Shown: positions 2,783 through 45,934 of the stretch, one piece after another
How the letters are laid out: each line of letters begins with the position of its first letter
How positions within the stretch are numbered: position 1 is the first letter of the stretch
DNA from: Marchantia polymorpha subsp. ruderalis
Taxonomy: Eukaryota; Streptophyta; Marchantiopsida; Marchantiales; Marchantiaceae
Direction of reading: 5' to 3'
Assembly (NCBI GenBank): GCA_037833965.1
Contig: AP031355.1
Span: 4,117,501 to 4,181,500 of the forward strand
Length of the DNA: 64,000 nt
The notes under the pieces: generated by a model
Databases searched by the model: none
Told to the model about the DNA's origin: nothing
Seen by the model: only the letters and a program-made list of their open reading frames with translations
Made by a program: the position numbers and the translations under genes

Positions 2783-3337
2783 TGTGGTACCCCACTTTTG
2801 GCAATTTTGAGGAAATTAAAACATTTTTGGAAAACTGTACCCTGGCAGCATTGTAAATAGCCTTCGGTACATCAAAACAGAGTGAATCCGGAAGATCGCG
2901 GGGATTCTCGAGGGATCTTGTAGAATCTGGGATTTGGGGTGCCGCAGTAAGGACAGGCACCACCCTCCCTGCGAGCTCTGCAGTTAGGATCTCTACGGCG
3001 CAAGGCGCAAAACTCGCCTTCGGAGGTTGCGTCCGCGGCTGTAGGGAAACCCTCCATAATTAGGTCAACCCTCGGGCGCCTTGACCAAGTTAGGATCCCG
3101 TTGGAAAGAGCTCAATGCACTGATTCCAACGAGCCCAAGAACGCTTGGAACGGATGAGGACTTAGGGAGTTATCGCTACTGGAAGAAACGGAGGCGGTCG
3201 CCTACGGCGGAAGGAGTTCGCCACCGGCGCGAATTCCGCCTACGCGGAAGGGGGAATCAAGTTTTGTCCTATGCACGGATGAAGGCGTTCGCCTGTGCAC
3301 AGGCGAAGTAGGGTTAGGGGAGGCGCGAAGTCCGCCT
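2783..3337 (+). repeat. E0 3' LTR, first part (5' end of U3)
   Basis: Begins TGTGGTACCCCAC and matches E2's LTR from 3338 onward, up to CGCGAAGTCCGCCT, where E2 is inserted. It continues at 19892. It contains the conserved U3 module (about 3080-3175) and several palindromic CCTGTGCACAGG-type motifs. Confidence 0.95.
3333..3337 (+). repeat. Target site duplication of E2, left copy (CGCCT)
   Basis: CGCCT lies immediately before the E2 LTR start and is repeated exactly at 19887-19891 after its end. This fixes the E2 boundaries and the LTR ends. Confidence 0.95.
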
Positions 3338-3639
3338 TGTGGTACCCCACTTTTGGCAATTTTGAGGAAATTAAAACATTTTTGGAAAACTGTACCCTGG
3401 CAACATTGTAAATAGCCTTCGGTACATCAAAACAGAGTGAATCCGGAAGATCGCGGGGATTCTCGAGGGATCTTATAGAATCTGGGATTTGGGGTGCCGC
3501 AGCAAGCACAGGCACCACCCTCCCTGCGAGTTCCGCAGTTAGGATCTCTACGGCGCAAGGCGCAAAATCCGCCTTCGGAGGTTGCGTCCGCGGCTGTAGG
3601 GAAACCCCCCGTAATTAGGTAAACCCTCGGGCGCCTTGA

Positions 3640-3730
3640 CCAAGTTAGGGTCTCGTTGGAAAGAGCTCGACGCGCTGATTCTAACGAGCCCAAGAACGCT
3701 TGGAACGGACGAGGACTTAGGGAGTTATCG
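3640..3730 (+). promoter_or_regulatory. Conserved U3 module shared by all related LTR families
   Basis: A roughly 90-bp noncoding segment around GTTGGAAAGAGCTCG, TTCTAACGAGCCCAAGAACG and GGAGTTAT. It recurs in every family-A LTR, in the family-B LTR (minus strand, about 57915-58010) and three times in the family-C mosaic (33300-33395, 33775-33865, 35095-35190). GCTCG and CGAGC can pair around a short loop. A role as enhancer or RNA element is inference. Confidence 0.5.
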
Positions 3731-4558
3731 CTACTGGAAGAAACGGAGGCGGTCGCCTTCGGCGGAAGGATTTCGCCACCGGCGCGAATTCCGCCTACGC
3801 GGAAGGGGGAATCAAATTTTGTCCTATGCGCGGACGAAGGCGTTCGCCTGAGCACAGGCAAAGTAGGGTTAGGGAAGGCGCGAAGTCCGCCTACGCACAG
3901 GCGAACGCCTGTGCACAGGCACTTCGGCGTCGGCGGAAAATCCGCCTTGGGCCCTAGAAATGCGCCTTGTGAGGTAGAAAGTGTACGGCGCCTTCCGCGC
4001 CAGCGCGGCGCCACGTACGGCCGCCAGAGTAATCCCATCGGTACGGACCGTGCGCACGGCACGGGTGGATGCGCTCTTGGACGGACGGAGTTGCGGCGGC
4101 GGAAGCGCCGACGGAGAGACAAGGAACGGACAGACTGGACGGAGACGGCTGACCACGGTCAACGCCTTCCGCGCCAGCGCAGCGCCGCGGACGGAATTCG
4201 CCTGTGCACAGGAGGATGTTCAAGTTCCGCACCGGCGGAGGATCCGCCGAGGCTCCTGCCTGCGCACAGGCAGGAGTTGAATTTTTGTCCGATATGCGGA
4301 CACACGCGTCAAGGCAGAAGGAGATTGGCCGAGGGGCGGTACGAACAAGTGTACCGCGCAAGGCGGAAAACTCGCCTTCGGCGCTACGCCCCCATGTCCG
4401 CAGGGCGACACGCTCGCGGAGTTCAAATACGCCAATTCGAGCGTGAGAGTTTAATCGACGACGGCGGAGCGTGAAGCCGCGCGTGAGAGCGAAGACCGTT
4501 CCAGCGTACAGCCGGCGCGGCCATCAAGTGAGACGTTCTTCACGACCAAGAGCCGACC

Positions 4559-7500
4559 ATGACCTTCGACCGGGCGGCGGAGAGCGTCCCATTCTTGAAT
4601 TCGCGATTCCAATCTCTTGTGCGCGCTGCGCGCATCCATCTGCTGGCTGCGGACCATTCTCGACGTCGTCACACAGGAGATTTCTTGCTGATTGAGGGAG
4701 AAGTGAGTACGCGTGATTTGGAATTGAGAGCGATTAGAGTTTGCCGAGAGAGAAAGAAACGCGGACAGTGCGGAAGTAGAATGAGCGGGCGAGCGAACCC
4801 CAGGAACGCAATGGCGAGACCGAGCAGATTGCGGATGGTGCCACTTCGCCTGCCGCAGAACGGGCTGCGCGCTTTCGAAGAGCGCTTGATAGCAAGAAAG
4901 CTCGATTTCTTGCTATGGGGATGGAATTACATCTGCGCGAATATGGTGCGCGAGTGGCTAGAGCCACAGGGACCACCCTCGCGCGGATTGCGTCCGCATG
5001 TTGACCGGTGGACAGTCCAAGATTGGGCGCAGGCGTTGGGAAGATGTGCTGGCATGCCAGGGCATCTCCTTTTCGACAGTGAGAGCATCAAGGTGACCAA
5101 GCAAGAAGAGGCGCAATTTGTGGAGCTGTTCAAGACCGGGAGGTCTACCAAGAATGGGTACAGGACCCGTGATTACAAGGATCGATTTCGCCGGACTTTG
5201 TCCGCGGCGCTGATGCAATTACTGCAGCCGCACCGCGCCTGCTACATCACATTGTGGCAGGTCTCTTTTGTGGAGTGCGTCATCGAGGGAACTCCAATTC
5301 ACTGGGCGAGCATCCTGCACAGGGTGATGCGACAGCACGCGTTTGAGGAGAAGGGGGGAACTCTAAACCATCTTTCTCCTTTCCTCATCAATTTTTATCG
5401 ACAGCGAAATTGTTTGACAGCGGCGGAGCTTGAACATTTTCCGCCATTGTCCATCGACCATCCCGGGAAGTATGTGCGGGAGAACGAGGTCGACACTGAC
5501 GCAGAGGAGTCCCCGACTTCTACCCCATCAAGACGGAGAGACGAAGGGAGACACACCCCTGCAGCGCGAGTGCCGCGGAAGCGGCGATGGAGGGAAGAGT
5601 CCGAAGAGGAGCAGCATCAAGAACTCTCTGCTCCCATTCGACCGCGGCCGCTGTGCGAGCCATACAGCCGGCCGAAGCAGAAGGCACGCAGACTGGTGTT
5701 GCCAGCTGACAGTGCAGACACGGCGACGATTGCGACGGAGATAGGAAGTGCGTCGCCGGAGAGGCGAGAGGAAGCGCGGACGACCGCAGGAGCGACGGGC
5801 CACGCTGCAACCTCGTCGGGAGAGAGGCCGCCTACGGGCCAAGGGCCTCCGGAGTTACCACGTGCGATGCGGACAGAGGTTCCGTTTGCGCACAGGCGAA
5901 CCTCCGCGGACGGACGAGCCTCCGCGGACCGGCGAACACAAGTGGACGTGGATCTACGCTTACGCGTGGGAAGGAGCAGTCCGCCTGTGCACAGGCGCTC
6001 GCCTGTGCACAGGTCGCCTGTGCACAGGTCACCTGTGCACAGAACACCTCCGCACGTGCCGCCTGTGCACAGGCAAGAATCACCCCCGTTCCAACGTAGG
6101 AAGGGGAAGGAGCCGGCGGAAGAACCGCCTACGAGACACCGGCCCTCGGGGCCAGACCCTCCGGCGCACCACGCGCCGCAATTCGCGCCTTCGGCGCCAG
6201 GGCCTTCGAGCCGAGGGTATACGAGCAGAGATCGTGCGGAGGCCGCACCATCGGCGGGAAGTCCGCCGATAGATGCGCCTTCGGCGGTAGGGCCTATAGG
6301 CCGAGGAACATCGGGCGTGCGGCCCCCGGCCATGTCGCCTTCGGCGATAGATGTCCGCGGCGCTACGCCTGCGGCGGACAAGGCGCCGGCAAATGCGCCT
6401 GCGCACGGGCCGGGCACAGCCCCCACGGACCGATCGAGGGAGCAGCAGACGGAAGAGCGGAGTGACTGTCCGCGGGACGACATCTCGATGCGCGATGCGC
6501 AATCCAACCCCGCGCAGCCACCCTCCGCTCGATCGCCTTCGGCGACGGACGACGGCGACAGAGAGAATGCGGGAGGCAATCAACAAGTAAGCGACGGGGA
6601 TGCCGCGCGGGTACATTCGCCTTCCGCCTTAGACATTTTGGCGACGAGCAGCGAGGCCGCAGCCGTGCCTTCGCAGGCAGCACACGTCGAGGACGTGCAG
6701 CCCCACTCGGGGCAGTCGCCGACGCATTCAATGGCGACTGAAATTCTCCACTCGGATGATGACGACGGAGGCTCCACGGAAGAAATGTCAGGAGCAGGAG
6801 ACACCGAGGAGGAGGAGGAGGAAATTGTTGGAGCGCCGGCGGCGGCGCTCTCTGAGCAGGTGATTCCGTTGCTGCGGTACTTGGATCGCAAGGTCGATAA
6901 ATACGCCGACCCACTCCAGCCGGGATCTTACATCGAGTTAGTGCGCAGGAGGACTCGCACTAAAGTCCACACCAGCAAGCTATTAGCTAGAGTGGACCAG
7001 GAGTTGAGGGACTTGAAGGAGAAGCATGAGTGCTTGTGGGGACAGTACAAGCTTAATCAGAAATTCTACAAGCACTCCGAGAAGATGAAGGATGAGAAAC
7101 TGGGCGAGCTCACCAAGGAGCAGGTGAAGGTCAAGGAAGCACTCGATTTTGAGCAGGCCCAGAATCGGATTTTGTCAGAGGAGCTCGTGCGACAGACGCG
7201 GTTGTTGGAACAATGTCAGCTCGCACGGCAGGCGGATGAAGAATTAATCCGCAGTCTGCAGTCAGAGTGTGGCGAATTGAGGGCGCAGCGTGCTGAAGCC
7301 GAATCGCAATTAGTGACGATTGAAGAGGATCGCAGGAAGGAGGCGGATCGCACGAAGGTGGAGACGGCGAGGCGAGTCGCCCACTGTCTCAAGGGCTACG
7401 CCCACTGGGAAGTGAAGGCGCAGGAGAAACTCACACTGCGTGAGTTTGAATTGCGCGCAGCCGGGTTGTTGTCAGGCGACAGTAGGAGTCGGCGGAAGGT

Positions 7501-7711
7501 AGCAAAGAAGCTCGAGGCCTTTCTGTCGAAGGCACAGGATACCATGTCCGCCCTCGAGGGGGAGGTGTCCGCGGCGTTGCAGCGGTTGGGACTGCGCAGT
7601 CGAGCGGAAGAGTGGCAGGGTAGAGAGTTAGCGCGCGGCAGTCGGCCGCGTAGGAGACGTAGTACAGGTTCCGCGGAGTGTAGTGTAGCGTGGTTCCGTG
7701 CAGGCGTGTAG
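4559..7711 (+). CDS. U3-encoded accessory protein of family A (5' LTR copy of E2)
   Basis: An uninterrupted 1050-codon ORF inside the LTR, upstream of the element's own TATA box. Residues about 85-315 form a Trp-rich, apparently globular domain (LDFLLWGWN, GYRTRDYKDRFRR, GTLNHLSPFLI). Residues 316-764 are a low-complexity Pro/Arg/Ser/Ala linker partly encoded by palindromic repeats (PVHR units), ending in an acidic run (six Glu). Residues 765-1050 start with VIPLLRYLDRK, then a heptad-rich coiled coil (about 800-935), a conserved YAHWEV...LREFELRAA block and a basic RPRRRR tail that could be a nuclear localisation signal. The blocks 85-315 and 765-1050 are conserved in family B (54490-57045). 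The conserved start is probably ATG 4811 (AACGCAATGG, 966 aa); the upstream ATG at 4559 adds 84 residues not found in B. No catalytic motif is recognised. A role in RNA/DNA binding, particle assembly or silencing suppression would be guesswork. Confidence 0.8.
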   Translation: MTFDRAAESVPFLNSRFQSLVRAARIHLLAADHSRRRHTGDFLLIEGEVSTRDLELRAIRVCRERKKRGQCGSRMSGRANPRNAMARPSRLRMVPLRLPQNGLRAFEERLIARKLDFLLWGWNYICANMVREWLEPQGPPSRGLRPHVDRWTVQDWAQALGRCAGMPGHLLFDSESIKVTKQEEAQFVELFKTGRSTKNGYRTRDYKDRFRRTLSAALMQLLQPHRACYITLWQVSFVECVIEGTPIHWASILHRVMRQHAFEEKGGTLNHLSPFLINFYRQRNCLTAAELEHFPPLSIDHPGKYVRENEVDTDAEESPTSTPSRRRDEGRHTPAARVPRKRRWREESEEEQHQELSAPIRPRPLCEPYSRPKQKARRLVLPADSADTATIATEIGSASPERREEARTTAGATGHAATSSGERPPTGQGPPELPRAMRTEVPFAHRRTSADGRASADRRTQVDVDLRLRVGRSSPPVHRRSPVHRSPVHRSPVHRTPPHVPPVHRQESPPFQRRKGKEPAEEPPTRHRPSGPDPPAHHAPQFAPSAPGPSSRGYTSRDRAEAAPSAGSPPIDAPSAVGPIGRGTSGVRPPAMSPSAIDVRGATPAADKAPANAPAHGPGTAPTDRSREQQTEERSDCPRDDISMRDAQSNPAQPPSARSPSATDDGDRENAGGNQQVSDGDAARVHSPSALDILATSSEAAAVPSQAAHVEDVQPHSGQSPTHSMATEILHSDDDDGGSTEEMSGAGDTEEEEEEIVGAPAAALSEQVIPLLRYLDRKVDKYADPLQPGSYIELVRRRTRTKVHTSKLLARVDQELRDLKEKHECLWGQYKLNQKFYKHSEKMKDEKLGELTKEQVKVKEALDFEQAQNRILSEELVRQTRLLEQCQLARQADEELIRSLQSECGELRAQRAEAESQLVTIEEDRRKEADRTKVETARRVAHCLKGYAHWEVKAQEKLTLREFELRAAGLLSGDSRSRRKVAKKLEAFLSKAQDTMSALEGEVSAALQRLGLRSRAEEWQGRELARGSRPRRRRSTGSAECSVAWFRAGV
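5983..6075 (+). repeat. Cluster of CCTGTGCACAGG palindromes inside the U3 ORF
   Basis: Five closely spaced copies of the palindrome GCCTGTGCACAGGC or near versions. In the ORF they encode PVHR units in tandem. The same palindrome is scattered through the noncoding part of the LTR (for example 3897-3921, 4199-4212, 4255-4272). Copies can be gained or lost in frame: E0 has a shorter array here. Confidence 0.85.
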
Positions 7712-7747
7712 CGTAGTGCAGTGTAGTGTTAGTTAGGATTTAGAAGG

Positions 7748-7776
7748 TATAAAATAGTTCCAGGCGTTTTGCCTGG
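7748..7776 (+). promoter_or_regulatory. LTR core promoter: TATA box and adjoining hairpin (E2 5' LTR)
   Basis: TATAAAATAG at 7748-7757 is followed by CCAGGC-GTTTT-GCCTGG (7760-7776), a 6-bp stem with a 5-base loop. The expected start site (25-35 bases after TATA) falls at or just after the hairpin. Families B and C have TATAAAGTAG and the stem CAAGGC/GCCTTG with the same loop: a C-G pair has become A-T on both arms. This marks the start of R, so U3 and its ORF lie upstream of the transcription start in the 5' LTR. Confidence 0.75.
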
Positions 7777-8735
7777 GGTTCTTTCCCATCAGAAGTATAG
7801 ATCAGGACCCCATTTCCTTTGCGTGTTTGTGTCCTTGAGTTCTGTCACCACGCACGAGGAGTTACAACTTAGCGTTCCGCATTTTGTAGCTGAAGGCCTT
7901 CGGCCGAATGTTCAGAGCTAGTCCATTGGTTAGAGACTTGAGTAGTTCGGATCTGCACCTGCGGGTGACTGCCGATGCTCAGAGCCAGTGACTAGTTAGA
8001 TACTTGAACAGTTTCGCCCCTACACCTTCGAGTGTTTCTTTCTGATTGTACTCCCTTGGGATTTTTCCCCTGAATGCCAAAGTGAAGTTTTGCTACTTCG
8101 TGTAAGCCTTGGTTGTAAATTCAGGTTACGCTGCAGCAGGTGCCTTGAGGGTAACCCCTGTAGTATTTCTGGGAATGACAAGTGCCTGAGAATTCAAACT
8201 CTTCAATAGACTGTTGTTGTGTTACTGGAATGTTTCACAGTGAGTCCTTCAGTGCGGACCTGTGTTCTCTGCGCGTTTTGTGAGTTGAGAGTGTTGTTCA
8301 CCGCGTATGAGTGACTTCGATCCGAAGTAGGCAGTCCAAACCGGGTTTCCTACGCTAGCAGCAAGCTAGTGGAAGTGTTGTAAAAGCCGGAGTTGGAAGT
8401 CACTGCCCGCAGCTTTGCCGAGTGTGCTCGCGAGAGACTTTCCCCCTGAAATCTTGAGTAGAGGTCCTAACGGATCTCTGGGTTGTGTTTCTGTAGTTTC
8501 AGGTGTGTGTGTGTGTTACGCTGCACTGTGCGACCTCCGAGTGCGCTCCGAGTGGACACTTGCAGTATTTCTGGGAGTGACAGTCGCCTGAGAATTCAAA
8601 CTCATCAATAGTCTGTTAAACGTGACACTTTGTACCCTGTGTGTTCCTCTGTCCCTGTGGGTTCGACCTTTCTACCACTATATTGCAGTTTTAGCCTTTA
8701 GTGGGTTATTACATAAGAAGCCGACAACTTCTTTT

Positions 8736-8753
8736 TGGCGCCGCTGCCGGGGA
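8736..8753 (+). promoter_or_regulatory. Primer binding site, tRNA-Asp type (E2)
   Basis: TGGCGCCGCTGCCGGGGA is complementary to the 3' end of plant tRNA-Asp with one mismatch (known plant elements use TGGCGCCGTTGCC). It lies 22 bases after the LTR end. The gap (8714-8735) contains AGAAG...CTTCT, able to form a small stem. Confidence 0.88.
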
Positions 8754-8799
8754 CAGTTGCGTCAACACCGGGGTTTTTACGAGCAGTCATGCTCGGTGA

Positions 8800-11631
8800 A
8801 TGTCGACTGGGGCTGGCGGGAGCAACCTAAGTGCTAGAGCTGTCCGCAAGTTCCGACGAGATTCAGAGAAGGCCGTGGAAGAGACACGGCGTCAAAACAA
8901 GAAAACACCAAAAAGAGTACCTAAGCCTAGTTCGGCCGACGCCCTTGGGGAACCTACCCCCGACGACTCGGAACCAAACTTGGTGCTTACAGTTCTACTA
9001 GATATTCCTTGCACGGACCCGCCTAGTGAAGTAGAACCGACCGCCCGAAGACCGTCGACAGACACACCGATGGCGGACGGACAAGCCAATGTGCGGCTAC
9101 CTCAGCCGATTACTAAACATTCCTACCCGAAGTACAAAGGGAGTGGGGATGACGACGATGCAGATTCATACATCAAGTTGTTCGAGTCGGTGTCTATTGC
9201 CAATCGCGAGATCGCAGACGACGACCGACTAAGGATCTTTCCAAGCCTTCTGCGGAAGAAAGCGAGGAGTTGGTATAATCACGAGAGCATCGATCCGACT
9301 GGGTTGACAACATGGGCCCAGCTGAAGGAGAAGTTCCTTCGCCGCTTTCGCGAGCTCGGCTACGACAGCCGGGTTTTGACGAAGTTACGTAATTTGCAGC
9401 GAGAGAAGAAGGAGAGTCTGCGTGACTACACTGAGAGATTTCTGGACCTCCTCGACAGAATACCGAAAACAGGACCAGGGTCCCCTTTCTCGGTACAACA
9501 AGCTGTGGATTGGTACGTGACCGGTTTAACTCGGGAGATGGAGACTTTTTGCCGACGCAGCAAGTGCGACACTATTGAGGACGTGATTGCATCGGCAGAA
9601 GCCTTCGAAACTTCCACTCTCAACCGAAGAGGGAGAGAGAGACGGGAGTCGAAGGAACGAAAACCGAAGGGGGGGCGAAGACGACGTAGAGGTACAACTC
9701 CGTCATCGGAGGAATCGTCTTCGGACGAGAACCGTTCTTCATCCGAAGAAGAGGAAACCTCATCGTCGGAGGAGGAGAAGAAGAGGAAGAAGCATGGGTC
9801 AGCGAAGAAAAAGGGCATCCGACGAGTGACTACGGACAGAGCGCCGGGAGATATAGCTTCGAAGATGGAGACCCTTGTGAAGGACTTCGCCGATCTCAAG
9901 GTTCAAGTGGTAGGCGGGCATGATCGCAGAAAATCACCCGGGAGAGTGCGAGCGAACTTATGGTGTACTACGTGCGGGGCGGTGGGACATGCAAACACCG
10001 AGTGCCTTACCACCCGGCCGTCATATCCAGTCAACGCAGTAGAGTGGGCGCAACCGTACTATGGAGAGCACCCTCAGTACTATGGAGAGGCTAGCGAAGA
10101 GACAGCCTACGCCGTCCAGTCGGTTCCTACCCCTCCTGCAGTTTCAGCAATGCAAGTCCCACGATATATTCCGGTGGATCGGGCCACTACGGTACCTGTG
10201 AGGCGGAGAGCACCTCCAGGGACGTTTGACCCACCGCCACCTCGAGCTTGTTATAATTGCGGGGAAGTTGGGCACTTCTCACCGCAGTGTCCCCATCCAA
10301 AAAGGCGAAACGATTATGCTCCGACATGTAGTAATTGCAAGAAGGTCGGGCACACTGCGCCAGAGTGTGATCAGCCACCAGTCCCTCGGCCAGTGGTACG
10401 ATTTGTGAACACTCCTGCCAAGGAGGACGTGCAAGTTAACCAGGTCGAAGTAGGTTCAGACGGGGATGGCGAAGACGAAGAATGGCCGGCTGAAGAGGTT
10501 ATGTGCGCACGGGTCGAAACTCGTAGCTCCAAGAAATCCAAGGAGCAAGAGCGTGACACTCGCAAGCACGAACGGAGAACCGCCGACCGGACGGGAAAAG
10601 GAAAGGAGAAGACATCCAGCAAGTCCGACTCGCGACCTGCTCGGAAGACTTCGGCTACGCGGGAGGCACCAGCAGTGCGCCCCCAGACAGCAGTCGAGGA
10701 CGAGCCAGTGCGCCTACTGAAACGTGACTATGCTCCGGATATCCGCAACGAGGTAGCCAACCTGTTGCAGGAAGCGATCCGCACGCAAAAGGACCCACCG
10801 CGGCCAGACTTGACATCCTCCCTTGGGGCGAAGTTGGCAGCCACCGTGGAACCTCGCAGAGCGTCGCCGACCCTGGCGACCCAACGCGCCCACTATGACT
10901 TGGTTGAAGATCTCGGGAGTCGAAAAGTGAACATCACGTTCAAGCAGCTCTTGGAGGACAATAAGACGTATCGGAGAATGTTGATGCTTTCGCTACGGCA
11001 TCCGCGGAAGCCGCGCGCATCCACATCCTCTCAAGTATATCAAGTGGAGAGCGAAGACCAAGGGCCACCCGAGATCGATGTAGAGATCGCAGGGTGTTGT
11101 GTACGCAGGGTGCCAATCGACTCTGGATCAGGAGTCAACATAATGACGGAGGATACAGCGAGGGCCTTGGGGTACAGTCAATACGAACCCTCGAAGCGTG
11201 TGTTGAGATTGGCGGATCAGACGCGGAGAATGCCTGCAGGTATGCTGCGCAATGTCAAGACAACCATCGGGGGTGCGGACTTTCGGTTGACGTATATCAT
11301 CCTTCAACCGATGATGAAGCAGGGCTATGACGTTCTGCTCGGGCGACCATGGCTATATGGTGCACAAGTCAGATGTGATTGGCGAAGACATCGCCTTAAG
11401 TTTCCTCACCCTTCGGAACCGACCAAAACCATTACGGTACCCTGGAATAGGGTCAGGCACGAAGGAGAGACCCCATCGACAAGTGCAGGTTACACATCGG
11501 GCGAGGACAGTGAGTCGACCGCGCGATCGGATTCCAGTGGTACCGAATCCGATTACTTCGTGGGATTCGTTGCCTGCTGTTCGGTGGAAGAAGAAGAAGA
11601 GCCGGAAGCTATTCAGCCGGAAGACGAATAG
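8800..11631 (+). CDS. gag: Gag-protease polyprotein (E2)
   Basis: 943 codons from ATG 8800, 47 bases after the PBS. Residues about 120-270 are the retrotransposon Gag capsid-like domain (DRLRIFPSLLRKKARSWYN). A Ser/Glu-rich acidic stretch follows (300-327). There are three CX2CX4HX4C zinc knuckles (C389-C402, C484-C497, C510-C523), which bind RNA for packaging. The aspartic protease is at the C-terminal end (catalytic Asp774 in PIDSGSGVN, then VLLGRPWL near 845). The ORF stops at UAG 11629, which is followed by CAATTA and an open frame in the same register containing RT. Protease is therefore made with Gag, and RT-INT only by readthrough. Differs from the E5 copy by Asp for His at residue 351. 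Confidence 0.95.
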   Translation: MSTGAGGSNLSARAVRKFRRDSEKAVEETRRQNKKTPKRVPKPSSADALGEPTPDDSEPNLVLTVLLDIPCTDPPSEVEPTARRPSTDTPMADGQANVRLPQPITKHSYPKYKGSGDDDDADSYIKLFESVSIANREIADDDRLRIFPSLLRKKARSWYNHESIDPTGLTTWAQLKEKFLRRFRELGYDSRVLTKLRNLQREKKESLRDYTERFLDLLDRIPKTGPGSPFSVQQAVDWYVTGLTREMETFCRRSKCDTIEDVIASAEAFETSTLNRRGRERRESKERKPKGGRRRRRGTTPSSEESSSDENRSSSEEEETSSSEEEKKRKKHGSAKKKGIRRVTTDRAPGDIASKMETLVKDFADLKVQVVGGHDRRKSPGRVRANLWCTTCGAVGHANTECLTTRPSYPVNAVEWAQPYYGEHPQYYGEASEETAYAVQSVPTPPAVSAMQVPRYIPVDRATTVPVRRRAPPGTFDPPPPRACYNCGEVGHFSPQCPHPKRRNDYAPTCSNCKKVGHTAPECDQPPVPRPVVRFVNTPAKEDVQVNQVEVGSDGDGEDEEWPAEEVMCARVETRSSKKSKEQERDTRKHERRTADRTGKGKEKTSSKSDSRPARKTSATREAPAVRPQTAVEDEPVRLLKRDYAPDIRNEVANLLQEAIRTQKDPPRPDLTSSLGAKLAATVEPRRASPTLATQRAHYDLVEDLGSRKVNITFKQLLEDNKTYRRMLMLSLRHPRKPRASTSSQVYQVESEDQGPPEIDVEIAGCCVRRVPIDSGSGVNIMTEDTARALGYSQYEPSKRVLRLADQTRRMPAGMLRNVKTTIGGADFRLTYIILQPMMKQGYDVLLGRPWLYGAQVRCDWRRHRLKFPHPSEPTKTITVPWNRVRHEGETPSTSAGYTSGEDSESTARSDSSGTESDYFVGFVACCSVEEEEEPEAIQPEDE

Positions 11632-11637
11632 CAATTA
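11629..11637 (+). promoter_or_regulatory. Stop-codon readthrough context between PR and RT (E2)
   Basis: TAG CAA TTA: gag ends at TAG and the following codons are in frame with RT. UAG-CAA-UUA is the well-known tobamovirus readthrough signal (UAG CAR YYA). E5 has the identical nonamer, and family B has TAG CAA CTA, which also fits CARYYA. That readthrough happens in these elements is inference from the conserved motif and shared frame. Confidence 0.8.
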
Positions 11638-14473
11638 ACTGTGGGACTGGGAAGGAGTGAGACGAGTCACACCGAGGGCATTGTCGACCCTAGTGACTGT
11701 CGCGAAGTACAACTCAGTCCCGGCAAGTGCTTGAAGGTATCAAGCGCAGTGAGAGGAGACGAGCTAAGGAAAGTACAGGCATTCCTTAGCCATTATGTCG
11801 ACGTCTTCGCCTGGAAGATCGAAGACATGAAGGGGATACCTGCACGGTATGGGGAACACCGTATCGATTTACTGGACGACTCGGTACCCATACGACAGCG
11901 CCAGTATCGCCTCAACCCAAAGTACTCCTTGCTAGTGAAAGAGGAGATAGATAAGTACTTGAGCGCTGGTATTATTTACCCGGTGCTCAGCAGTGAGTGG
12001 GTGTCGCCGATTGTTATCGTACCCAAGAAGTTGACGGGTAAGATACGAGTGTGTCAGGATTTCCGGAAGTTGAATGCAGCAACACGCAAGGATCATCACC
12101 CGTTACCATTCACAGATGCCATTCTAGACCATGTCGCAGGACATGAATGTTATAGCTTCCTGGATGGGTTCTCAGGTTACAATCAGGTGTCTATCCGTGA
12201 ACAGGACAAGGATAAAACTACGTTCACAACCGACTGGGGAACTTACGCATACCACAAGATGCCCTTCGGTCTGTGCAACGCGCCTGCCACCTTTCAACGG
12301 ATGATGACCAATATCTTTCAGGAACAACTGAGGAAGTTCCTGGAAATATTCATAGATGACTTCTGTGTCTTTGGGAAGCGGTCTGAACACCTAAGTCACT
12401 TGAAGCAGACCTTCGATAAATGCAGGGAGAGCAGTTTATCACTGCATCCCGAGAAGTGCTTTTTTCTTTATGACTAGTGGGATCTTGTTGGGTCATCGAG
12501 TCTCGGCAGACGGCATTGCGGTGGACGTCGAGAAGGTCAAGGTTATACTCGAGCTTGAGCCACCCACGAATCTAAGGGAGCTGCGAGCATTCCTGGGTCA
12601 TGTGGGCTATTACCGAAGATTCATACACATGTATGCAATACTAGCGGCGGACCTGACCAAGTTGTTGAAGAAGGACGAGCCTTATGCTTGGGGTGCGAAC
12701 CAGCAGACAGCATTTGAAGCTCTGAAAGCAAAACTCACGACTGCTCCCGTACTAAGGAGTCCAGACTGGAATCGACCATTCCATGTTTACGTTGACACAT
12801 CGGCATTCGCCATCGGTGTAGTACTGAGTCAAAAGGATGACAACAAAAAGGACTACCCGATCTACTTCGCGAGCCGACAGCTGTCTCTAGCAGAGCGGAA
12901 GTACACCACGACGGAGAGAGAAGCGTTGGGGATGGTGTACTCCTGTAAAAAGTTCCGTCACTACCTAATCTGCTACGAGTTTGTGTTCCATGTGGACCAC
13001 TACGCATTGCAACACCTAGTCAAGAAAGCCGACCTATCCGGTCGAATCGCCAGGTGGGTGTTGTTACTACAAGAGTTCACCTACACAGTCCAGACCAGGA
13101 AAGGGGTGCACCACGAAAATGCGGATTACTTGTCCCGATTATGGACCCAGCCGACAGAGGAGGAATTGGTGGACGATTTTCCAGATGAAGAGTTATTTCA
13201 GTTGTCTGCAGGACATGAGTCCCGCTATGCCGACCTGTATCGATATCTGCTAACCCTCCAGGGTCCCGAAGGCATGGATTTGGAACAGCGAACTGTCTTT
13301 ATTCATAAGGCAGGCCCGTACCAACTCCAGCAGGGGGTTTTGTTTAAGAAGATGGCAGATGAGCGCTTATGCAGATGCCTGGAGGAATCAGAGGTACCAA
13401 GAATAGTGAGTGCGATGCATACTGAGGAGGCGGGTGGACACTATGCCACCAGGAACACGGTCACAAAGATCCTAAATGCGGGATATTGGTGGCCGACCAT
13501 GTTTAAGGATGTTTTCGATTACATCCGCAAGTGCGACAGTTGCCAGAGGACGGGGAGACCGACGCCTACAACACGCTGGCCCCTGACTCCCATCATGCCT
13601 CTAGCACCTTTCGAAAAGTGGGGTATTGACTTTGTAGGGCCGATACAACCAGTGACTAGAAGTACACGAAGGCGCTACATTCTGGTAGCAACGGACTACG
13701 CCACCAAAATGGTAGAGGCCAGAGCCACCAGAAAGGATGATGCTGCCACAGTGGCAGCATTCTTGTTTGAGTCAATCATCACACGCTACGGATGTCCCTT
13801 AGAGCTAGTCAGCGACCGGGGCACGCATTTTCTGAATCAGATCATCGAAGACCTGACACGGTATTTCCACATCAAGCACCGGAAGACTACTCCATACAAT
13901 CCCAAGGCAAATGGACTGACGGAGAAGTCCAATGGTCTGCTGTGTAAAATACTACTCAAGGTCACGGTGAATCACGCTCACGACTGGGATACGAAGCTAG
14001 CGGCCGCTCTATGGGCGTACCGCACAGCTGAGAAGATCACGACCAAACAGACACCATACTTTCTGGTGTATGGGCAACACCCGATCCTCCCAATCGAATT
14101 TGAAGTACCCACCCATCGAACGATGGATTTGCAGAGGATGGGCGCAGAGGAGAGTCAGCTCTACAGGTTACAGGAGGTCATGCTGCTGGATGAGAGGAGA
14201 CGAGATGCCGAAGATCGCACCAGGAAGATCCAGCTCCGCCGAAAGGAGAGATACGATAAAAAGATCAAACCGGTACTCCTGCAGGCGGGTGATTTGGCAT
14301 TGCTCTACGACAGCAGGCATGCCAGATTCCCAGGCAAACTGCACCTAAGGTGGATGGGACCTTACAGGGTTGTCGAAGTCTTCCCGAATGGATCCATCCA
14401 ACTTGCGGACCTGGCCGGCGATTTGTTAGGCACCCGAGTCAACGGGTGGCGGTTGAAGAAATACCACATGTGA
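11632..14473 (+). pseudogene. pol: pol (RT-RNase H-integrase) with a 1-bp frameshift (E2)
   Basis: In frame with gag after the UAG. It encodes the RT N-terminal half, including FLDGFSGYNQ and the catalytic FIDDFCVFG. A run of six T at 12460-12465 (five in E5) then shifts the frame, so translation ends at 12475-12477. The rest of RT, RNase H (VYVDTSAFAIG, TTEREALGM, VDHYALQHL), the integrase HHCC finger, DDE core and GPY-type end continue intact in the other frame from 12470 to 14473. Apart from this single base the sequence is almost identical to the open E5 copy, so the break is very recent. E2 would need RT and integrase supplied by other copies. Confidence 0.93.
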
Positions 14474-14497
14474 GTGTTCGCGTGGGCGCTCACAATT

Positions 14498-14510
14498 GAG
14501 GAGGGGGGCA
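14498..14510 (+). promoter_or_regulatory. Polypurine tract (E2)
   Basis: GAGGAGGGGGGCA immediately before the 3' LTR start TGTGG at 14511, 24 bases after the pol stop. Primer for plus-strand synthesis. Confidence 0.88.
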
Positions 14511-15731
14511 TGTGGTACCCCACTTTTGGCAATTTTGAGGAAATTAAAACATTTTTGGAAAACTGTACCCTGGCAACATTGTAAATAGCCTTCGGTACAT
14601 CAAAACAGAGTGAATCCGGAAGATCGCGGGGATTCTCGAGGGATCTTATAGAATCTGGGATTTGGGGTGCCGCAGCAAGCACAGGCACCACCCTCCCTGC
14701 GAGTTCCGCAGTTAGGATCTCTACGGCGCAAGGCGCAAAATCCGCCTTCGGAGGTTGCGTCCGCGGCTGTAGGGAAACCCCCCGTAATTAGGTAAACCCT
14801 CGGGCGCCTTGACCAAGTTAGGGTCTCGTTGGAAAGAGCTCGACGCGCTGATTCTAACGAGCCCAAGAACGCTTGGAACGGACGAGGACTTAGGGAGTTA
14901 TCGCTACTGGAAGAAACGGAGGCGGTCGCCTTCGGCGGAAGGATTTCGCCACCGGCGCGAATTCCGCCTACGCGGAAGGGGGAATCAAATTTTGTCCTAT
15001 GCGCGGACGAAGGCGTTCGCCTGAGCACAGGCAAAGTAGGGTTAGGGAAGGCGCGAAGTCCGCCTACGCACAGGCGAACGCCTGTGCACAGGCACTTCGG
15101 CGTCGGCGGAAAATCCGCCTTGGGCCCTAGAAATGCGCCTTGTGAGGTAGAAAGTGTACGGCGCCTTCCGCGCCAGCGCGGCGCCACGTACGGCCGCCAG
15201 AGTAATCCCATCGGTACGGACCGTGCGCACGGCACGGGTGGATGCGCTCTTGGACGGACGGAGTTGCGGCGGCGGAAGCGCCGACGGAGAGACAAGGAAC
15301 GGACAGACTGGACGGAGACGGCTGACCACGGTCAACGCCTTCCGCGCCAGCGCAGCGCCGCGGACGGAATTCGCCTGTGCACAGGAGGATGTTCAAGTTC
15401 CGCACCGGCGGAGGATCCGCCGAGGCTCCTGCCTGCGCACAGGCAGGAGTTGAATTTTTGTCCGATATGCGGACACACGCGTCAAGGCAGAAGGAGATTG
15501 GCCGAGGGGCGGTACGAACAAGTGTACCGCGCAAGGCGGAAAACTCGCCTTCGGCGCTACGCCCCCATGTCCGCAGGGCGACACGCTTGCGGAGTTCAAA
15601 TACGCCAATTCGAGCGTGAGAGTTTAATCGACGACGGCGGAGCGTGAAGCCGCGCGTGAGAGCGAAGACCGTTCCAGCGTACAGCCGGCGCGGCCATCAA
15701 GTGAGACGTTCTTCACGACCAAGAGCCGACC

Positions 15732-18700
15732 ATGACCTTCGACCGGGCGGCGGAGAGCGTCCCATTCTTGAATTCGCGATTCCAATCTCTTGTGCGCGCT
15801 GCGCGCATCCATCTGCTGGCTGCGGACCATTCTCGACGTCGTCACACAGGAGATTTCTTGCTGATTGAGGGAGAAGTGAGTACGCGTGATTTGGAATTGA
15901 GAGCGATTAGAGTTTGCCGAGAGAGAAAGAAACGCGGACAGTGCGGAAGTAGAATGAGCGGGCGAGCGAACCCCAGGAACGCAATGGCGAGACCGAGCAG
16001 ATTGCGGATGGTGCCACTTCGCCTGCCGCAGAACGGGCTGCGCGCTTTCGAAGAGCGCTTGATAGCAAGAAAGCTCGATTTCTTGCTATGGGGATGGAAT
16101 TACATCTGCGCGAATATGGTGCGCGAGTGGCTAGAGCCACAGGGACCACCCTCGCGCGGATTGCGTCCGCATGTTGACCGGTGGACAGTCCAAGATTGGG
16201 CGCAGGCGTTGGGAAGATGTGCTGGCATGCCAGGGCATCTCCTTTTCGACAGTGAGAGCATCAAGGTGACCAAGCAAGAAGAGGCGCAATTTGTGGAGCT
16301 GTTCAAGACCGGGAGGTCTACCAAGAATGGGTACAGGACCCGTGATTACAAGGATCGATTTCGCCGGACTTTGTCCGCGGCGCTGATGCAATTACTGCAG
16401 CCGCACCGCGCCTGCTACATCACATTGTGGCAGGTCTCTTTTGTGGAGTGCGTCATCGAGGGAACTCCAATTCACTGGGCGAGCATCCTGCACAGGGTGA
16501 TGCGACAGCACGCGTTTGAGGAGAAGGGGGGAACTCTAAACCATCTTTCTCCTTTCCTCATCAATTTTTATCGACAGCGAAATTGTTTGACAGCGGCGGA
16601 GCTTGAACATTTTCCGCCATTGTCCATCGACCATCCCGGGAAGTATGTGCGGGAGAACGAGGTCGACACTGACGCAGAGGAGTCCCCGACTTCTACCCCA
16701 TCAAGACGGAGAGACGAAGGGAGACACACCCCTGCAGCGCGAGTGCCGCGGAAGCGGCGATGGAGGGAAGAGTCCGAAGAGGAGCAGCATCAAGAACTCT
16801 CTGCTCCCATTCGACCGCGGCCGCTGTGCGAGCCATACAGCCGGCCGAAGCAGAAGGCACGCAGACTGGTGTTGCCAGCTGACAGTGCAGACACGGCGAC
16901 GATTGCGACGGAGATAGGAAGTGCGTCGCCGGAGAGGCGAGAGGAAGCGCGGACGACCGCAGGAGCGACGGGCCACGCTGCAACCTCGTCGGGAGAGAGG
17001 CCGCCTACGGGCCAAGGGCCTCCGGAGTTACCACGTGCGATGCGGACAGAGGTTCCGTTTGCGCACAGGCGAACCTCCGCGGACGGACGAGCCTCCGCGG
17101 ACCGGCGAACACAAGTGGACGTGGATCTACGCTTACGCGTGGGAAGGAGCAGTCCGCCTGTGCACAGGCGCTCGCCTGTGCACAGGTCGCCTGTGCACAG
17201 GTCACCTGTGCACAGAACACCTCCGCACGTGCCGCCTGTGCACAGGCAAGAATCACCCCCGTTCCAACGTAGGAAGGGGAAGGAGCCGGCGGAAGAACCG
17301 CCTACGAGACACCGGCCCTCGGGGCCAGACCCTCCGGCGCACCACGCGCCGCAATTCGCGCCTTCGGCGCCAGGGCCTTCGAGCCGAGGGTATACGAGCA
17401 GAGATCGTGCGGAGGCCGCACCATCGGCGGGAAGTCCGCCGATAGATGCGCCTTCGGCGGTAGGGCCTATAGGCCGAGGAACATCGGGCGTGCGGCCCCC
17501 GGCCATGTCGCCTTCGGCGATAGATGTCCGCGGCGCTACGCCTGCGGCGGACAAGGCGCCGGCAAATGCGCCTGCGCACGGGCCGGGCACAGCCCCCACG
17601 GACCGATCGAGGGAGCAGCAGACGGAAGAGCGGAGTGACTGTCCGCGGGACGACATCTCGATGCGCGATGCGCAATCCAACCCCGCGCAGCCACCCTCCG
17701 CTCGATCGCCTTCGGCGACGGACGACGGCGACAGAGAGAATGCGGGAGGCAATCAACAAGTAAGCGACGGGGATGCCGCGCGGGTACATTCGCCTTCCGC
17801 CTTAGACATTTTGGCGACGAGCAGCGAGGCCGCAGCCGTGCCTTCGCAGGCAGCACACGTCGAGGACGTGCAGCCCCACTCGGGGCAGTCGCCGACGCAT
17901 TCAATGGCGACTGAAATTCTCCACTCGGATGATGACGACGGAGGCTCCACGGAAGAAATGTCAGGAGCAGGAGACACCGAGGAGGAGGAGGAGGAAATTG
18001 TTGGAGCGCCGGCGGCGGCGCTCTCTGAGCAGGTGATTCCGTTGCTGCGGTACTTGGATCGCAAGGTCGATAAATACGCCGACCCACTCCAGCCGGGATC
18101 TTACATCGAGTTAGTGCGCAGGAGGACTCGCACTAAAGTCCACACCAGCAAGCTATTAGCTAGAGTGGACCAGGAGTTGAGGGACTTGAAGGAGAAGCAT
18201 GAGTGCTTGTGGGGACAGTACAAGCTTAATCAGAAATTCTACAAGCACTCCGAGAAGATGAAGGATGAGAAACTGGGCGAGCTCACCAAGGAGCAGGTGA
18301 AGGTCAAGGAAGCACTCGATTTTGAGCAGGCCCAGAATCGGATTTTGTCAGAGGAGCTCGTGCGACAGACGCGGTTGTTGGAACAATGTCAGCTCGCACG
18401 GCAGGCGGATGAAGAATTAATCCGCAGTCTGCAGTCAGAGTGTGGCGAATTGAGGGCGCAGCGTGCTGAAGCCGAATCGCAATTAGTGACGATTGAAGAG
18501 GATCGCAGGAAGGAGGCGGATCGCACGAAGGTGGAGACGGCGAGGCGAGTCGCCCACTGTCTCAAGGGCTACGCCCACTGGGAAGTGAAGGCGCAGGAGA
18601 AACTCACACTGCGTGAGTTTGAATTGCGCGCAGCCGGGTTGTTGTCAGGCGACAGTAGGAGTCGGCGGAAGGTAGCAAAGAAGCTCGAGGCCTTTCTGTC

Positions 18701-18884
18701 GAAGGCACAGGATACCATGTCCGCCCTCGAGGGGGAGGTGTCCGCGGCGTTGCAGCGGTTGGGACTGCGCAGTCGAGCGGAAGAGTGGCAGGGTAGAGAG
18801 TTAGCGCGCGGCAGTCGGCCGCGTAGGAGACGTAGTACAGGTTCCGCGGAGTGTAGTGTAGCGTGGTTCCGTGCAGGCGTGTAG
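15732..18884 (+). CDS. U3-encoded accessory protein (3' LTR copy of E2)
   Basis: Protein identical to that of the ORF at 4559-7711; the conserved start corresponds to ATG 15984. This is the copy that would be present in the full-length element RNA, because transcription starts in R of the 5' LTR and ends in R of the 3' LTR. Here the ORF follows pol by about 1.26 kb (1.5 kb to the conserved ATG), so expression would need a spliced or subgenomic RNA or a promoter within U3. Domain layout as in the 5' copy: N-terminal globular block, Pro-rich palindrome-coded linker, C-terminal coiled coil and basic tail. Position relative to pol and LTR resembles the sag gene of mouse mammary tumour virus; no sequence relationship is claimed. 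Confidence 0.82.
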   Translation: MTFDRAAESVPFLNSRFQSLVRAARIHLLAADHSRRRHTGDFLLIEGEVSTRDLELRAIRVCRERKKRGQCGSRMSGRANPRNAMARPSRLRMVPLRLPQNGLRAFEERLIARKLDFLLWGWNYICANMVREWLEPQGPPSRGLRPHVDRWTVQDWAQALGRCAGMPGHLLFDSESIKVTKQEEAQFVELFKTGRSTKNGYRTRDYKDRFRRTLSAALMQLLQPHRACYITLWQVSFVECVIEGTPIHWASILHRVMRQHAFEEKGGTLNHLSPFLINFYRQRNCLTAAELEHFPPLSIDHPGKYVRENEVDTDAEESPTSTPSRRRDEGRHTPAARVPRKRRWREESEEEQHQELSAPIRPRPLCEPYSRPKQKARRLVLPADSADTATIATEIGSASPERREEARTTAGATGHAATSSGERPPTGQGPPELPRAMRTEVPFAHRRTSADGRASADRRTQVDVDLRLRVGRSSPPVHRRSPVHRSPVHRSPVHRTPPHVPPVHRQESPPFQRRKGKEPAEEPPTRHRPSGPDPPAHHAPQFAPSAPGPSSRGYTSRDRAEAAPSAGSPPIDAPSAVGPIGRGTSGVRPPAMSPSAIDVRGATPAADKAPANAPAHGPGTAPTDRSREQQTEERSDCPRDDISMRDAQSNPAQPPSARSPSATDDGDRENAGGNQQVSDGDAARVHSPSALDILATSSEAAAVPSQAAHVEDVQPHSGQSPTHSMATEILHSDDDDGGSTEEMSGAGDTEEEEEEIVGAPAAALSEQVIPLLRYLDRKVDKYADPLQPGSYIELVRRRTRTKVHTSKLLARVDQELRDLKEKHECLWGQYKLNQKFYKHSEKMKDEKLGELTKEQVKVKEALDFEQAQNRILSEELVRQTRLLEQCQLARQADEELIRSLQSECGELRAQRAEAESQLVTIEEDRRKEADRTKVETARRVAHCLKGYAHWEVKAQEKLTLREFELRAAGLLSGDSRSRRKVAKKLEAFLSKAQDTMSALEGEVSAALQRLGLRSRAEEWQGRELARGSRPRRRRSTGSAECSVAWFRAGV

Positions 18885-18920
18885 CGTAGTGCAGTGTAGT
18901 GTTAGTTAGGATTTAGAAGG

Positions 18921-18949
18921 TATAAAATAGTTCCAGGCGTTTTGCCTGG
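18921..18949 (+). promoter_or_regulatory. TATA box and hairpin, E2 3' LTR
   Basis: TATAAAATAG at 18921-18930 and CCAGGC-GTTTT-GCCTGG at 18933-18949, identical to the 5' LTR. In this LTR it could drive transcription into flanking E0 sequence. Confidence 0.72.
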
Positions 18950-19886
18950 GGTTCTTTCCCATCAGAAGTATAGATCAGGACCCCATTTCCTTTGCGTGTT
19001 TGTGTCCTTGAGTTCTGTCACCACGCACGAGGAGTTACAACTTAGCGTTCCGCATTTTGTAGCTGAAGGCCTTCGGCCGAATGTTCAGAGCTAGTCCATT
19101 GGTTAGAGACTTGAGTAGTTCGGATCTGCACCTGCGGGTGACTGCCGATGCTCAGAGCCAGTGACTAGTTAGATACTTGAACAGTTTCGCCCCTACACCT
19201 TCGAGTGTTTCTTTCTGATTGTACTCCCTTGGGATTTTTCCCCTGAATGCCAAAGTGAAGTTTTGCTACTTCGTGTAAGCCTTGGTTGTAAATTCAGGTT
19301 ACGCTGCAGCAGGTGCCTTGAGGGTAACCCCTGTAGTATTTCTGGGAATGACAAGTGCCTGAGAATTCAAACTCTTCAATAGACTGTTGTTGTGTTACTG
19401 GAATGTTTCACAGTGAGTCCTTCAGTGCGGACCTGTGTTCTCTGCGCGTTTTGTGAGTTGAGAGTGTTGTTCACCGCGTATGAGTGACTTCGATCCGAAG
19501 TAGGCAGTCCAAACCGGGTTTCCTACGCTAGCAGCAAGCTAGTGGAAGTGTTGTAAAAGCCGGAGTTGGAAGTCACTGCCCGCAGCTTTGCCGAGTGTGC
19601 TCGCGAGAGACTTTCCCCCTGAAATCTTGAGTAGAGGTCCTAACGGATCTCTGGGTTGTGTTTCTGTAGTTTCAGGTGTGTGTGTGTGTTACGCTGCACT
19701 GTGCGACCTCCGAGTGCGCTCCGAGTGGACACTTGCAGTATTTCTGGGAGTGACAGTCGCCTGAGAATTCAAACTCATCAATAGTCTGTTAAACGTGACA
19801 CTTTGTACCCTGTGTGTTCCTCTGTCCCTGTGGGTTCGACCTTTCTACCACTATATTGCAGTTTTAGCCTTTAGTGGGTTATTACA

Positions 19887-19891
19887 CGCCT
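19887..19891 (+). repeat. Target site duplication of E2, right copy (CGCCT)
   Basis: Exact repeat of 3333-3337, directly after the E2 3' LTR. Confidence 0.95.
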
Positions 19892-35648: not shown

Positions 35649-35679
<31 letters not shown>

Positions 35680-40516: not shown

Positions 40517-41458
40517 CACTTTGTAATAACCCACTAAAGGCTAAAACTGCAATATAGTGGTAGAAAGGTCGAACCCACAGGGACAGAGGAACACACAGGG
40601 TACAAAGTGTCACGTTTAACAGACTATTGATGAGTTTGAATTCTCAGGCGACTGTCACTCCCAGAAATACTGCAAGTGTCCACTCGGAGCGCACTCGGAG
40701 GTCGCACAGTGCAGCGTAACACACACACACACCTGAAACTACAGAAACACAACCCAGAGATCCGTTAGGACCTCTACTCAAGATTTCAGGGGGAAAGTCT
40801 CTCGCGAGCACACTCGGCAAAGCTGCGGGCAGTGACTTCCAACTCCGGCTTTTACAACACTTCCACTAGCTTGCTGCTAGCGTAGGAAACCCGGTTTGGA
40901 CTGCCTACTTCGGATCGAAGTCACTCATACGCGGTGAACAACACTCTCAACTCACAAAACGCGCAGAGAACACAGGTCCGCACTGAAGGACTCACTGTGA
41001 AACATTCCAGTAACACAACAACAGTCTATTGAAGAGTTTGAATTCTCAGGCACTTGTCATTCCCAGAAATACTACAGGGGTTACCCTCAAGGCACCTGCT
41101 GCAGCGTAACCTGAATTTACAACCAAGGCTTACACGAAGTAGCAAAACTTCACTTTGGCATTCAGGGGAAAAATCCCAAGGGAGTACAATCAGAAAGAAA
41201 CACTCGAAGGTGTAGGGGCGAAACTGTTCAAGTATCTAACTAGTCACTGGCTCTGAGCATCGGCAGTCACCCGCAGGTGCAGATCCGAACTACTCAAGTC
41301 TCTAACCAATGGACTAGCTCTGAACATTCGGCCGAAGGCCTTCAGCTACAAAATGCGGAACGCTAAGTTGTAACTCCTCGTGCGTGGTGACAGAACTCAA
41401 GGACACAAACACGCAAAGGAAATGGGGTCCTGATCTATACTTCTGATGGGAAAGAACC

Positions 41459-41487
41459 CCAGGCAAAACGCCTGGAACTATTTTATA
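41459..41487 (-). promoter_or_regulatory. TATA box and hairpin, E5 3' LTR
   Basis: TATAAAATAG (41487-41478) followed by CCAGGC-GTTTT-GCCTGG (41475-41459), as in E2. Confidence 0.72.
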
Positions 41488-41523
41488 CCTTCTAAATCCT
41501 AACTAACACTACACTGCACTACG

Positions 41524-45910: not shown

Positions 45911-45934
45911 AATTGTGAGCGCCCACGCGAACAC

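What the first reader, a model, noticed from the sequence alone, without database searches (positions are those of the whole stretch)
3338..8713. Giant LTRs that encode a large protein in U3
The 5376-bp family-A LTR, bounded by verified target duplications (CGCCT for E2, TTCAT for E3), contains a 1050-codon sense ORF upstream of the element TATA box. In the full-length RNA the ORF lies in the 3' LTR, downstream of pol. A retroelement gene in U3 is known from mouse mammary tumour virus (sag). I know of no established plant retrotransposon gene in this position. Three LTR copies here (E2 both, E5) encode identical proteins.
Basis: partly seen in the sequence, partly recalled or inferred. Interest (0 to 1): 0.95.

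Follow-up and report, generated by a model that had tools for sequence, protein, structure and literature searches.

The report
Retrotransposon gene inside its LTR
A family of jumping genes in a liverwort genome carries an extra, selectively preserved protein gene inside its very long end repeats, so that even a leftover single repeat can keep a copy of the gene.

Summary
E2 has two 5376-bp LTRs with the CGCCT duplication; E3 is a solo LTR with TTCAT; E2 (both LTRs) and E5 carry identical sense ORFs in U3, ending 36 nt before a TATA box. The likely start is codon 85 (966 aa). The gene is not private to one copy group: family B (4864-bp LTRs, 49% identical protein) has it in both LTRs, and one decayed LTR of a third family has it too. 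Of 36 R-U5 matches outside the window I read 12; all 12 hold the ORF over 52-100% of its length, 6 with stops. Against a mutation-class null, 14 copies give omega about 0.37; stops are private only (10 seen, 8.4 expected; none shared, 7.9 expected); shared N-domain changes give 0.04. Named homologues are all Marchantia polymorpha. No Pfam, PDB, Gag or transmembrane match was found. I read it as an accessory gene of Ty3/gypsy elements enclosed in U3. Expression and function are unshown. My searches found no plant precedent for the position.

The parts
3338..8713 (+). Family-A element E2, 5' LTR (5376 bp, TGTGG...TTACA)
8714..14510 (+). E2 internal region: gag-PR ORF 8800-11631, RT ORF 11641-12477, RNase H/integrase ORF 12470-14473 (pol read in two frames in this copy)
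14511..19886 (+). E2 3' LTR
4559..7711 (+). LTR (U3) ORF, 1050 codons; likely start at 4811 (966 aa)
15732..18884 (+). Identical ORF in the E2 3' LTR, downstream of pol in the element RNA
14496..14510 (+). Polypurine tract region (TTGAGGAGGGGGGCA, by inspection) directly before the 3' LTR, hence upstream of the ORF
7748..7754 (+). TATA box (TATAAAA), 36 nt after the ORF stop; TATAAA core shared by families A, B and the third
8736..8754 (+). PBS-like TGGCGCCGCTGCCGGGGAC, 22 nt after the LTR end (tRNA-Asp type by recall)
26750..32161 (+). E3 solo LTR (TTCAT duplications) with ORF 27997-31041 (1014 codons)
2783..3337 (+). E1 3' LTR, first part (interrupted by E2)
19887..24712 (+). E1 3' LTR, second part; its ORF copy has a 1-nt insertion and a stop
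40522..45897 (-). E5 3' LTR with intact ORF 44676-41524
45898..51693 (-). E5 internal region (gag 51607-48776, pol 48766-45935, each one open frame)
51694..53535 (-). E5 5' LTR, downstream part; the rest lies beyond the family-B insertion
53536..58399 (-). Family-B element, 3' LTR (4864 bp)
54490..57063 (-). Family-B U3 ORF (857 codons; likely start 57045, 851 aa)
58400..64000 (-). Family-B internal region as far as the window goes (pol 61178-58437, gag 63902-61278); its 5' LTR lies outside the window (L049)

Best explanation
The ORF is a genuine accessory gene of a lineage of Ty3/gypsy elements in a Marchantia genome, enclosed within U3 because the PPT/LTR boundary lies upstream of it instead of downstream (shown by anatomy). 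Each round of reverse transcription should therefore copy it into both LTRs (established retroelement replication), and solo LTRs can keep it (shown: E3, with a slightly shorter ORF). It has been kept by purifying selection while the element lineages were active (shown for family A). Inferred: the protein, a conserved probably helical N domain plus a basic/disordered linker and a coiled-coil-like C part, acts in the nucleus to help the element, for example at its own LTR chromatin or with the pre-integration complex. It is made from an RNA that starts upstream in U3, or from a spliced or 3'-end RNA of the element, and ends at the poly(A) site of the same LTR.
For: LTR pair, duplications and PPT before the ORF. 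Same anatomy in B, both LTRs, and in one LTR of a third family. Genome: 44 family-A copies listed, 20 of them in 10 pairs 11.17-11.20 kb apart; 53 family-B copies, 31 in 16 pairs 10.63-10.66 kb apart. Selection: omega 0.21 E2/E3, N domain 0.06, C part 0.09; 12 of 12 R-U5-chosen copies hold the ORF (52-100% of it) with omega 0.18-0.33; mutation-class null, omega 0.37, 0 shared stops against 7.9 expected, and in 13 of 14 copies none of 300 simulations reached as few amino-acid changes (L040: 11 of 300). TATAAA core after the stop in three families; shared start context. Basic stretches like PRKRRW and RPKQKARR in 6 of 7 rows of A1, with substitutions; no hydrophobic segment of TM strength.
Against: No transcript, ribosome or protein data. 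No known domain. Both structure models were poor (mean pLDDT 41.9 and 47.7), so 'helical' is tentative; 'coiled coil' and 'nuclear' are my reading of the sequence, no predictor was run. A search for TATA[AT]A[AT] found none upstream of the ORF in A or B U3 and one at LTR position 71 in the third family; the pattern is narrow, as it also misses B's own TATAAAG. The protein changes much faster than pol (49% against about 90% identity, A to B) and its middle part is weakly constrained (omega about 0.6). 6 of the 12 R-U5-chosen copies carry in-frame stops and 2 a frameshift, as expected for decay but not proof of function in present copies. No unbiased copy sample was taken for family B.
Confidence: 0.62

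Rival explanations
1. Same gene, expressed only from the 3' LTR: an env- or sag-like gene translated from a spliced subgenomic RNA that starts at the TATA box of the 5' LTR, with the ORF as last exon. The 5' and solo-LTR copies are then silent by-products.
For: The conserved TATA lies downstream of the ORF, so element RNA from the 5' LTR includes only the 3'-LTR copy. [quoted passage not shown]
Against: No splice sites were tested. The U3 stretch before the ORF is 1.2-1.5 kb with a block conserved among three families, more than a bare last exon needs.
Confidence: 0.3
2. Captured host gene carried passively, with purifying selection inherited from the time before capture.
For: No similarity to the element's Gag or to Pfam families was found.
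Against: Shared changes within family A, which arose while the elements multiplied, are constrained (omega 0.3 for changes in 4 or more of 14 copies). The protein searches, which score only about 8000 candidates each, found no named relative outside Marchantia polymorpha. The gene is in families A and B whose pol silent sites are saturated.
Confidence: 0.05
3. A sense relative of the plant aORF proteins with Transposase_28 / Transposase_32 domains (Retand ORF4 and the like), moved into the LTR.
For: Similar outline by recall: an N domain with a pattern like 'HLsPflInFY', then a long coiled-coil-like part; Retand ORF4 carries PF04195 and PvRetro13 ORF2 an SMC domain (PMC7264820).
Against: 0 of 31 members match PF04195 or PF20167 at E<=1. 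Genome searches with both families found nothing, but rang in none of the 14 control genomes either, so they say little. Those aORFs are antisense.
Confidence: 0.15
4. A long open frame without function, from GC-rich sequence.
For: GC is about 60% here, and long antisense open frames exist (320 codons).
Against: Shuffles reach at most 359 codons; codon constraint, shared start context and homologous proteins in other families.
Confidence: 0.02

Closest known systems
MMTV sag (betaretrovirus LTR-encoded superantigen)
   Same: Sense gene in U3, therefore present in both LTRs and in the 3' end of the RNA.
   Different: Sag is a type II transmembrane protein (PMC11998498, passages); this protein has no segment of TM strength and is about three times as long (Sag length recalled). 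Here the element is Ty3/gypsy with only 37 nt between pol stop and 3' LTR, so no env there. No sequence comparison with Sag was made.
Plant sense aORF elements (env-like aORF-3S, for example Athila and Bagy2)
   Same: Extra sense gene downstream of pol in a plant LTR element.
   Different: Those lie in the internal region between pol and the 3' LTR (PMC7264820); here the PPT and LTR start precede the gene.
Plant antisense aORF elements (Retand, Grande gene23, RIRE2, PvRetro13)
   Same: Accessory gene of unknown role; GENE23 protein nuclear, SMC domain in PvRetro13 ORF2 (PMC7264820).
   Different: Antisense and internal there; no shared Pfam domain found here.
Rice Retrosat2/RIRE3/RIRE8 (LTRs about 3 kb or more, ORF0)
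   Same: Long LTRs plus an extra ORF.
   Different: ORF0 lies upstream of gag-pol (ORF1), not in the LTR (PMC3485330, passages).
[not shown]
   Same: Ty3/gypsy, Marchantia host, no additional RNase H (PMC10508981, passages; no second RNase H domain).
   Different: Lineage not tested by phylogeny; no LTR gene was mentioned in the passages I saw.

Membership tests
Ty3/gypsy LTR retrotransposon | Paired TG...CA LTRs with short target duplications | tested here: met
Ty3/gypsy LTR retrotransposon | gag, protease, RT-RNase H-integrase in that order | tested here: met
   Pfam: PF03732, PF19259, PF13650 (just under its cut-off), PF00078, PF17919, PF17917, PF17921, PF00665
[quoted passage not shown]
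   PPT by inspection; PBS-like site 22 nt after the LTR, farther than usual by recall
[quoted passage not shown]
   The ORF lies inside the LTR; PPT and LTR start lie between pol and ORF
Plant sense aORF (env-like) element | Transmembrane segment | tested here: not met
   Highest 19-residue Kyte-Doolittle mean 1.14 (A) and 1.22 (B)
Antisense aORF (Retand/Grande type) | Antisense to gag-pol | tested here: not met
   Sense
Antisense aORF (Retand/Grande type) | PF04195 or related domain | tested here: inconclusive
   No hmmscan match in 31 members; genome searches rang nowhere, controls included; no profile-profile test was possible
MMTV sag-like U3 gene | Sense coding region within U3, upstream of the LTR promoter | tested here: met
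MMTV sag-like U3 gene | Type II transmembrane protein | tested here: not met
MMTV sag-like U3 gene | Expression from a subgenomic RNA | not testable with these tools
   no transcript data
[not shown]
   no reference set at hand

The most novel reading that the evidence does not exclude
The LTR itself is a self-contained gene unit (promoter in the 5' part of U3, gene, terminator in R). A single LTR, solo or paired, can then make the protein, which acts in trans on all LTRs of the family. Loss of the element body by LTR recombination would leave working helper genes behind, so the copy number of helper genes could exceed that of complete elements: a retroelement regulatory system that I know of in no plant.
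Probability: 0.25. Interest if true: 0.85.

Novelty: new variant of a known kind. Interest (0 to 1): 0.68.

Why it matters
Plant LTRs are usually treated as non-coding control regions (my statement), and the review of plant accessory ORFs describes them in the internal region (PMC7264820). A constrained gene of nearly 1000 codons inside U3, held in at least three families, means that repeat annotation can miss it or book it as host genes: relatives are in the M. polymorpha protein set as Mp_8g15400 and AXG93 'hypothetical proteins'. It makes testable whether solo LTRs can act as helper genes, and why some LTRs are so long.

Tried and rejected
Relation to the element's own Gag: profile-profile comparison, probability 0.5%, 7 columns aligned. 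Known domains: Pfam on 10 window proteins and 31 family members; for the LTR protein only weak hits in one member each (Extensin_1, CENP-K and the like; 18 families). PDB by profile: 0 matches at E<=1. Two AlphaFold models of the N domain (mean pLDDT 41.9 and 47.7) were too poor for a fold search, so none was run. Family searches PF20167 and PF04195 in the genome rang nowhere, controls included. An env-like reading was dropped for lack of a TM segment. The first sample of copies (20 loci; pooled pN/pS 0.19 over 105 pairs of distinct sequences, 0.13-0.75 for single copies against E2) was ranked by protein similarity and so biased; the argument rests instead (12 of the 36 R-U5 matches outside the window, every third; the other 24 were not read). 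In one search those 12 plus E3 and the second part of E1 were used; the protein-ranked copies were left out. Sixteen further protein-ranked regions (L021-L036) appear only.

Literature: PMC7264820 read in the main text, parts 1-2 of 3; passages only of PMC3485330, PMC10508981, PMC9985172, PMC5784723, PMC10714607, PMC11302176, PMC4031123, PMC11998498, PMC12037069, PMC4016481; other titles and abstract starts in search listings only. Papers in subscription journals were mostly not available.
Full report
What is there. The window holds nested Ty3/gypsy elements. E2 (3338-19886) has LTRs of 5376 bp that differ at 1 position, TG...CA ends, the duplication CGCCT and a polypurine tract directly before its 3' LTR. 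E3 (26750-32161) is a solo LTR between two TTCAT. E1's 3' LTR (2783-3337 and 19887-24712) was split by E2. E5 (minus strand) has the duplication AAGTG, an intact 3' LTR, and a 5' LTR with an internal deletion (LTR positions 497-2321) and a family-B element inserted in it. Family B has 4864-bp LTRs that are 99.96% identical, one in the window (58399-53536) and one just outside it (L049).

The gene in the LTR. Four family-A LTRs in the window hold a long sense ORF: E2 (both), E5 3' (1050 codons each, identical in DNA) and E3 (1014 codons); the E1 copy is broken. The ORF ends 36 nt before a TATA box; in family B the distance is 33 nt and in a third family 66 nt, with TATAAA(A/G)TAG shared. The ORF is therefore wholly within U3. 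Shuffles of the LTR gave at most 359 open codons. In alignment A6, 12 of 20 relatives have a Met at the column of codon 85 (M[AS]...LRM.PL..PQ.GLRAF; for most of them the start is a gene predictor's choice), and the context AACGC(A/G)ATG is shared by families A, B and the third. Codons 1-87 show little constraint. I therefore take 4811-7711 (966 aa) as the gene.

It is a gene under selection. E2 against E3: dN/dS 0.21; N domain 0.06, middle 0.37, C part 0.09. For comparison, pol of E1 against E2 over 408 codons is 0.17. To avoid choosing copies by their protein, I took copies by the R-U5 DNA (40 scored of 2668 candidates, 36 outside the window) and fetched every third, 12 of 36. All 12 hold the ORF over 52-100% of its length, with omega 0.18-0.33 against E2; 6 of the 12 carry at least one in-frame stop and 2 (L038, L046) a frameshift. 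A null that keeps the base and CpG class of each change expects 926 amino-acid changes, 411 silent ones and 48 stops over 14 copies (the 12, E3 and part of E1); 625, 750 and 10 were seen; in 13 of 14 copies none of 300 simulations had as few amino-acid changes, in L040 11 of 300 did. Counted once per distinct change, stops were 10 (8.4 expected) among changes private to one copy and 0 (7.9 expected) among changes shared by two or more; omega was 0.47 for private changes, 0.49 for those in 2-3 copies and 0.30 for those in 4 or more. Stops falling only among private changes is the pattern of selection while elements multiplied and decay after insertion; that private changes also lie below 1 shows that they are not all post-insertion decay. 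In the N domain, shared changes are 2 amino-acid to 23 silent (16 to 8 expected), omega 0.04; the C part gives 0.28; the middle 0.62.

It is not confined to one copy group. Searching the genome (241.5 Mb, 9 contigs; the window is C6:4117501-4181500) with the A protein listed 44 copies, 3 of them with stops, 20 of them in 10 same-strand pairs 11.17-11.20 kb apart, the LTR spacing of E2; the B protein listed 53 copies, 2 with stops, 31 in 16 pairs 10.63-10.66 kb apart. These lists are ranked by protein score and cut off (44 of 13855 and 53 of 13099 candidates scored), so they are lower bounds and biased to intact copies. A and B differ much: RT and RNase H/integrase about 90% identical, gag 63%, this protein 49%, with saturated silent sites in gag and pol. 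The M. polymorpha protein P0001 finds one place 98% identical (residues 81-710) and many older ones, mostly at 60-88%, many with stops (63 scored). At the first place (L050) an LTR start lies at 685 and the gene region runs from an ATG at 1981 in the shared context to a stop at 4513, with two in-frame stops near its start; sequence similar to the family-A LTR continues to 5260, where a family-A LTR on the other strand interrupts it. I count this as a third family with the same anatomy; its other LTR and target duplication were not looked at.

Host. Named protein homologues were all from Marchantia polymorpha (nearly all subsp. ruderalis), the rest from unnamed assemblies (4, 28 and 43 proteins; each search scored about 8000 candidates). 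P0001 is 98% identical to its place here, P0038 (Mp_8g15400) 95% to the B protein. The genome is thus probably of the Marchantia polymorpha complex or very near; the name was not given and I did not settle it.

What the protein may be. No Pfam or PDB relative, no similarity to Gag, no hydrophobic segment of membrane strength. The N domain models are low in confidence and mainly helical. The alignment shows basic stretches (like ARVPRKRRW, SRPKQKARR; 6 of 7 rows, with substitutions) after the N domain, an acidic and proline-rich middle, and a C part that reads as coiled coil (my reading, no predictor was run). A nuclear accessory protein is the most economical guess, in line with Grande GENE23 (nuclear) and PvRetro13 ORF2 (SMC domain) (PMC7264820).

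How it may work. In plant elements with sense accessory genes the gene sits between pol and the 3' LTR. Here the PPT and LTR start lie between pol and the gene, so second-strand synthesis primed at this PPT would put the gene in the LTR and each new copy carries it twice (inference from the replication of LTR elements). Recombination to a solo LTR can keep it. Which RNA makes the protein is open: an RNA from the 5' part of U3 (1.2-1.5 kb, with a block conserved in three families; a narrow TATA pattern found none there in A or B and one in the third family), or a spliced or 3'-end RNA of the whole element.

Known kinds. The review of plant aORFs (PMC7264820; parts 1-2 of 3 read) describes none in an LTR. 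Retrosat2, with LTRs over 3.2 kb, has ORF0 upstream of gag-pol (PMC3485330, passages). MMTV sag shares the position only (PMC11998498, passages). Searches for ORFs in LTRs and for Marchantia elements brought no plant precedent in the listings and passages that I saw; I did not open most of the papers listed. I rate it a new variant of a known kind: an accessory gene of LTR elements, in a position not known to me in plants, with a protein family for which I found no described relative.

Noticed in passing
8714-8754 and L049 (family B): The PBS-like TGGCGCCGCTGCCGGGGAC starts 22 nt after the LTR end, with a spacer conserved between families A and B; the usual distance is a few nt (recalled).
   Followed up: partly
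8800-14473; 45935-51607: gag-PR and pol are in the same frame, separated by a stop, in E2 and E5. In E2 the pol frame is broken between the RT and RNase H/integrase parts, while E5 pol is one frame.
   Followed up: no
P0038 (Mp_8g15400), P0056 (MARPO_0006s0274): A B-type LTR gene is in the M. polymorpha protein set as an ordinary hypothetical protein; another model joins a piece of the LTR gene, a low-complexity stretch and gag.
   Followed up: partly
33293-35873: Remains of a related LTR without the ORF: similarity covers part of the 5' U3 (LTR positions 295-671) and resumes at the position equal to 7715, just after the ORF stop at 7711; a fragment with an LTR-like start lies within it at 34847. 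tblastn found no ORF remnant there beyond chance-level hits.
   Followed up: partly
G000:C5:9246375-9270257: Three family-B LTR genes in a row at 10656-base spacing, as from recombination between elements sharing an LTR.
   Followed up: no
3655-3699: Block GTTGGAAAGAGCTC...GCGCT...TTCTAACGAG.CCAAGA.CGC in U3, largely conserved in three families.
   Followed up: no
1-1516: Start of a further LTR on the minus strand, abutting the E1 pol remnant at 1517.
   Followed up: no
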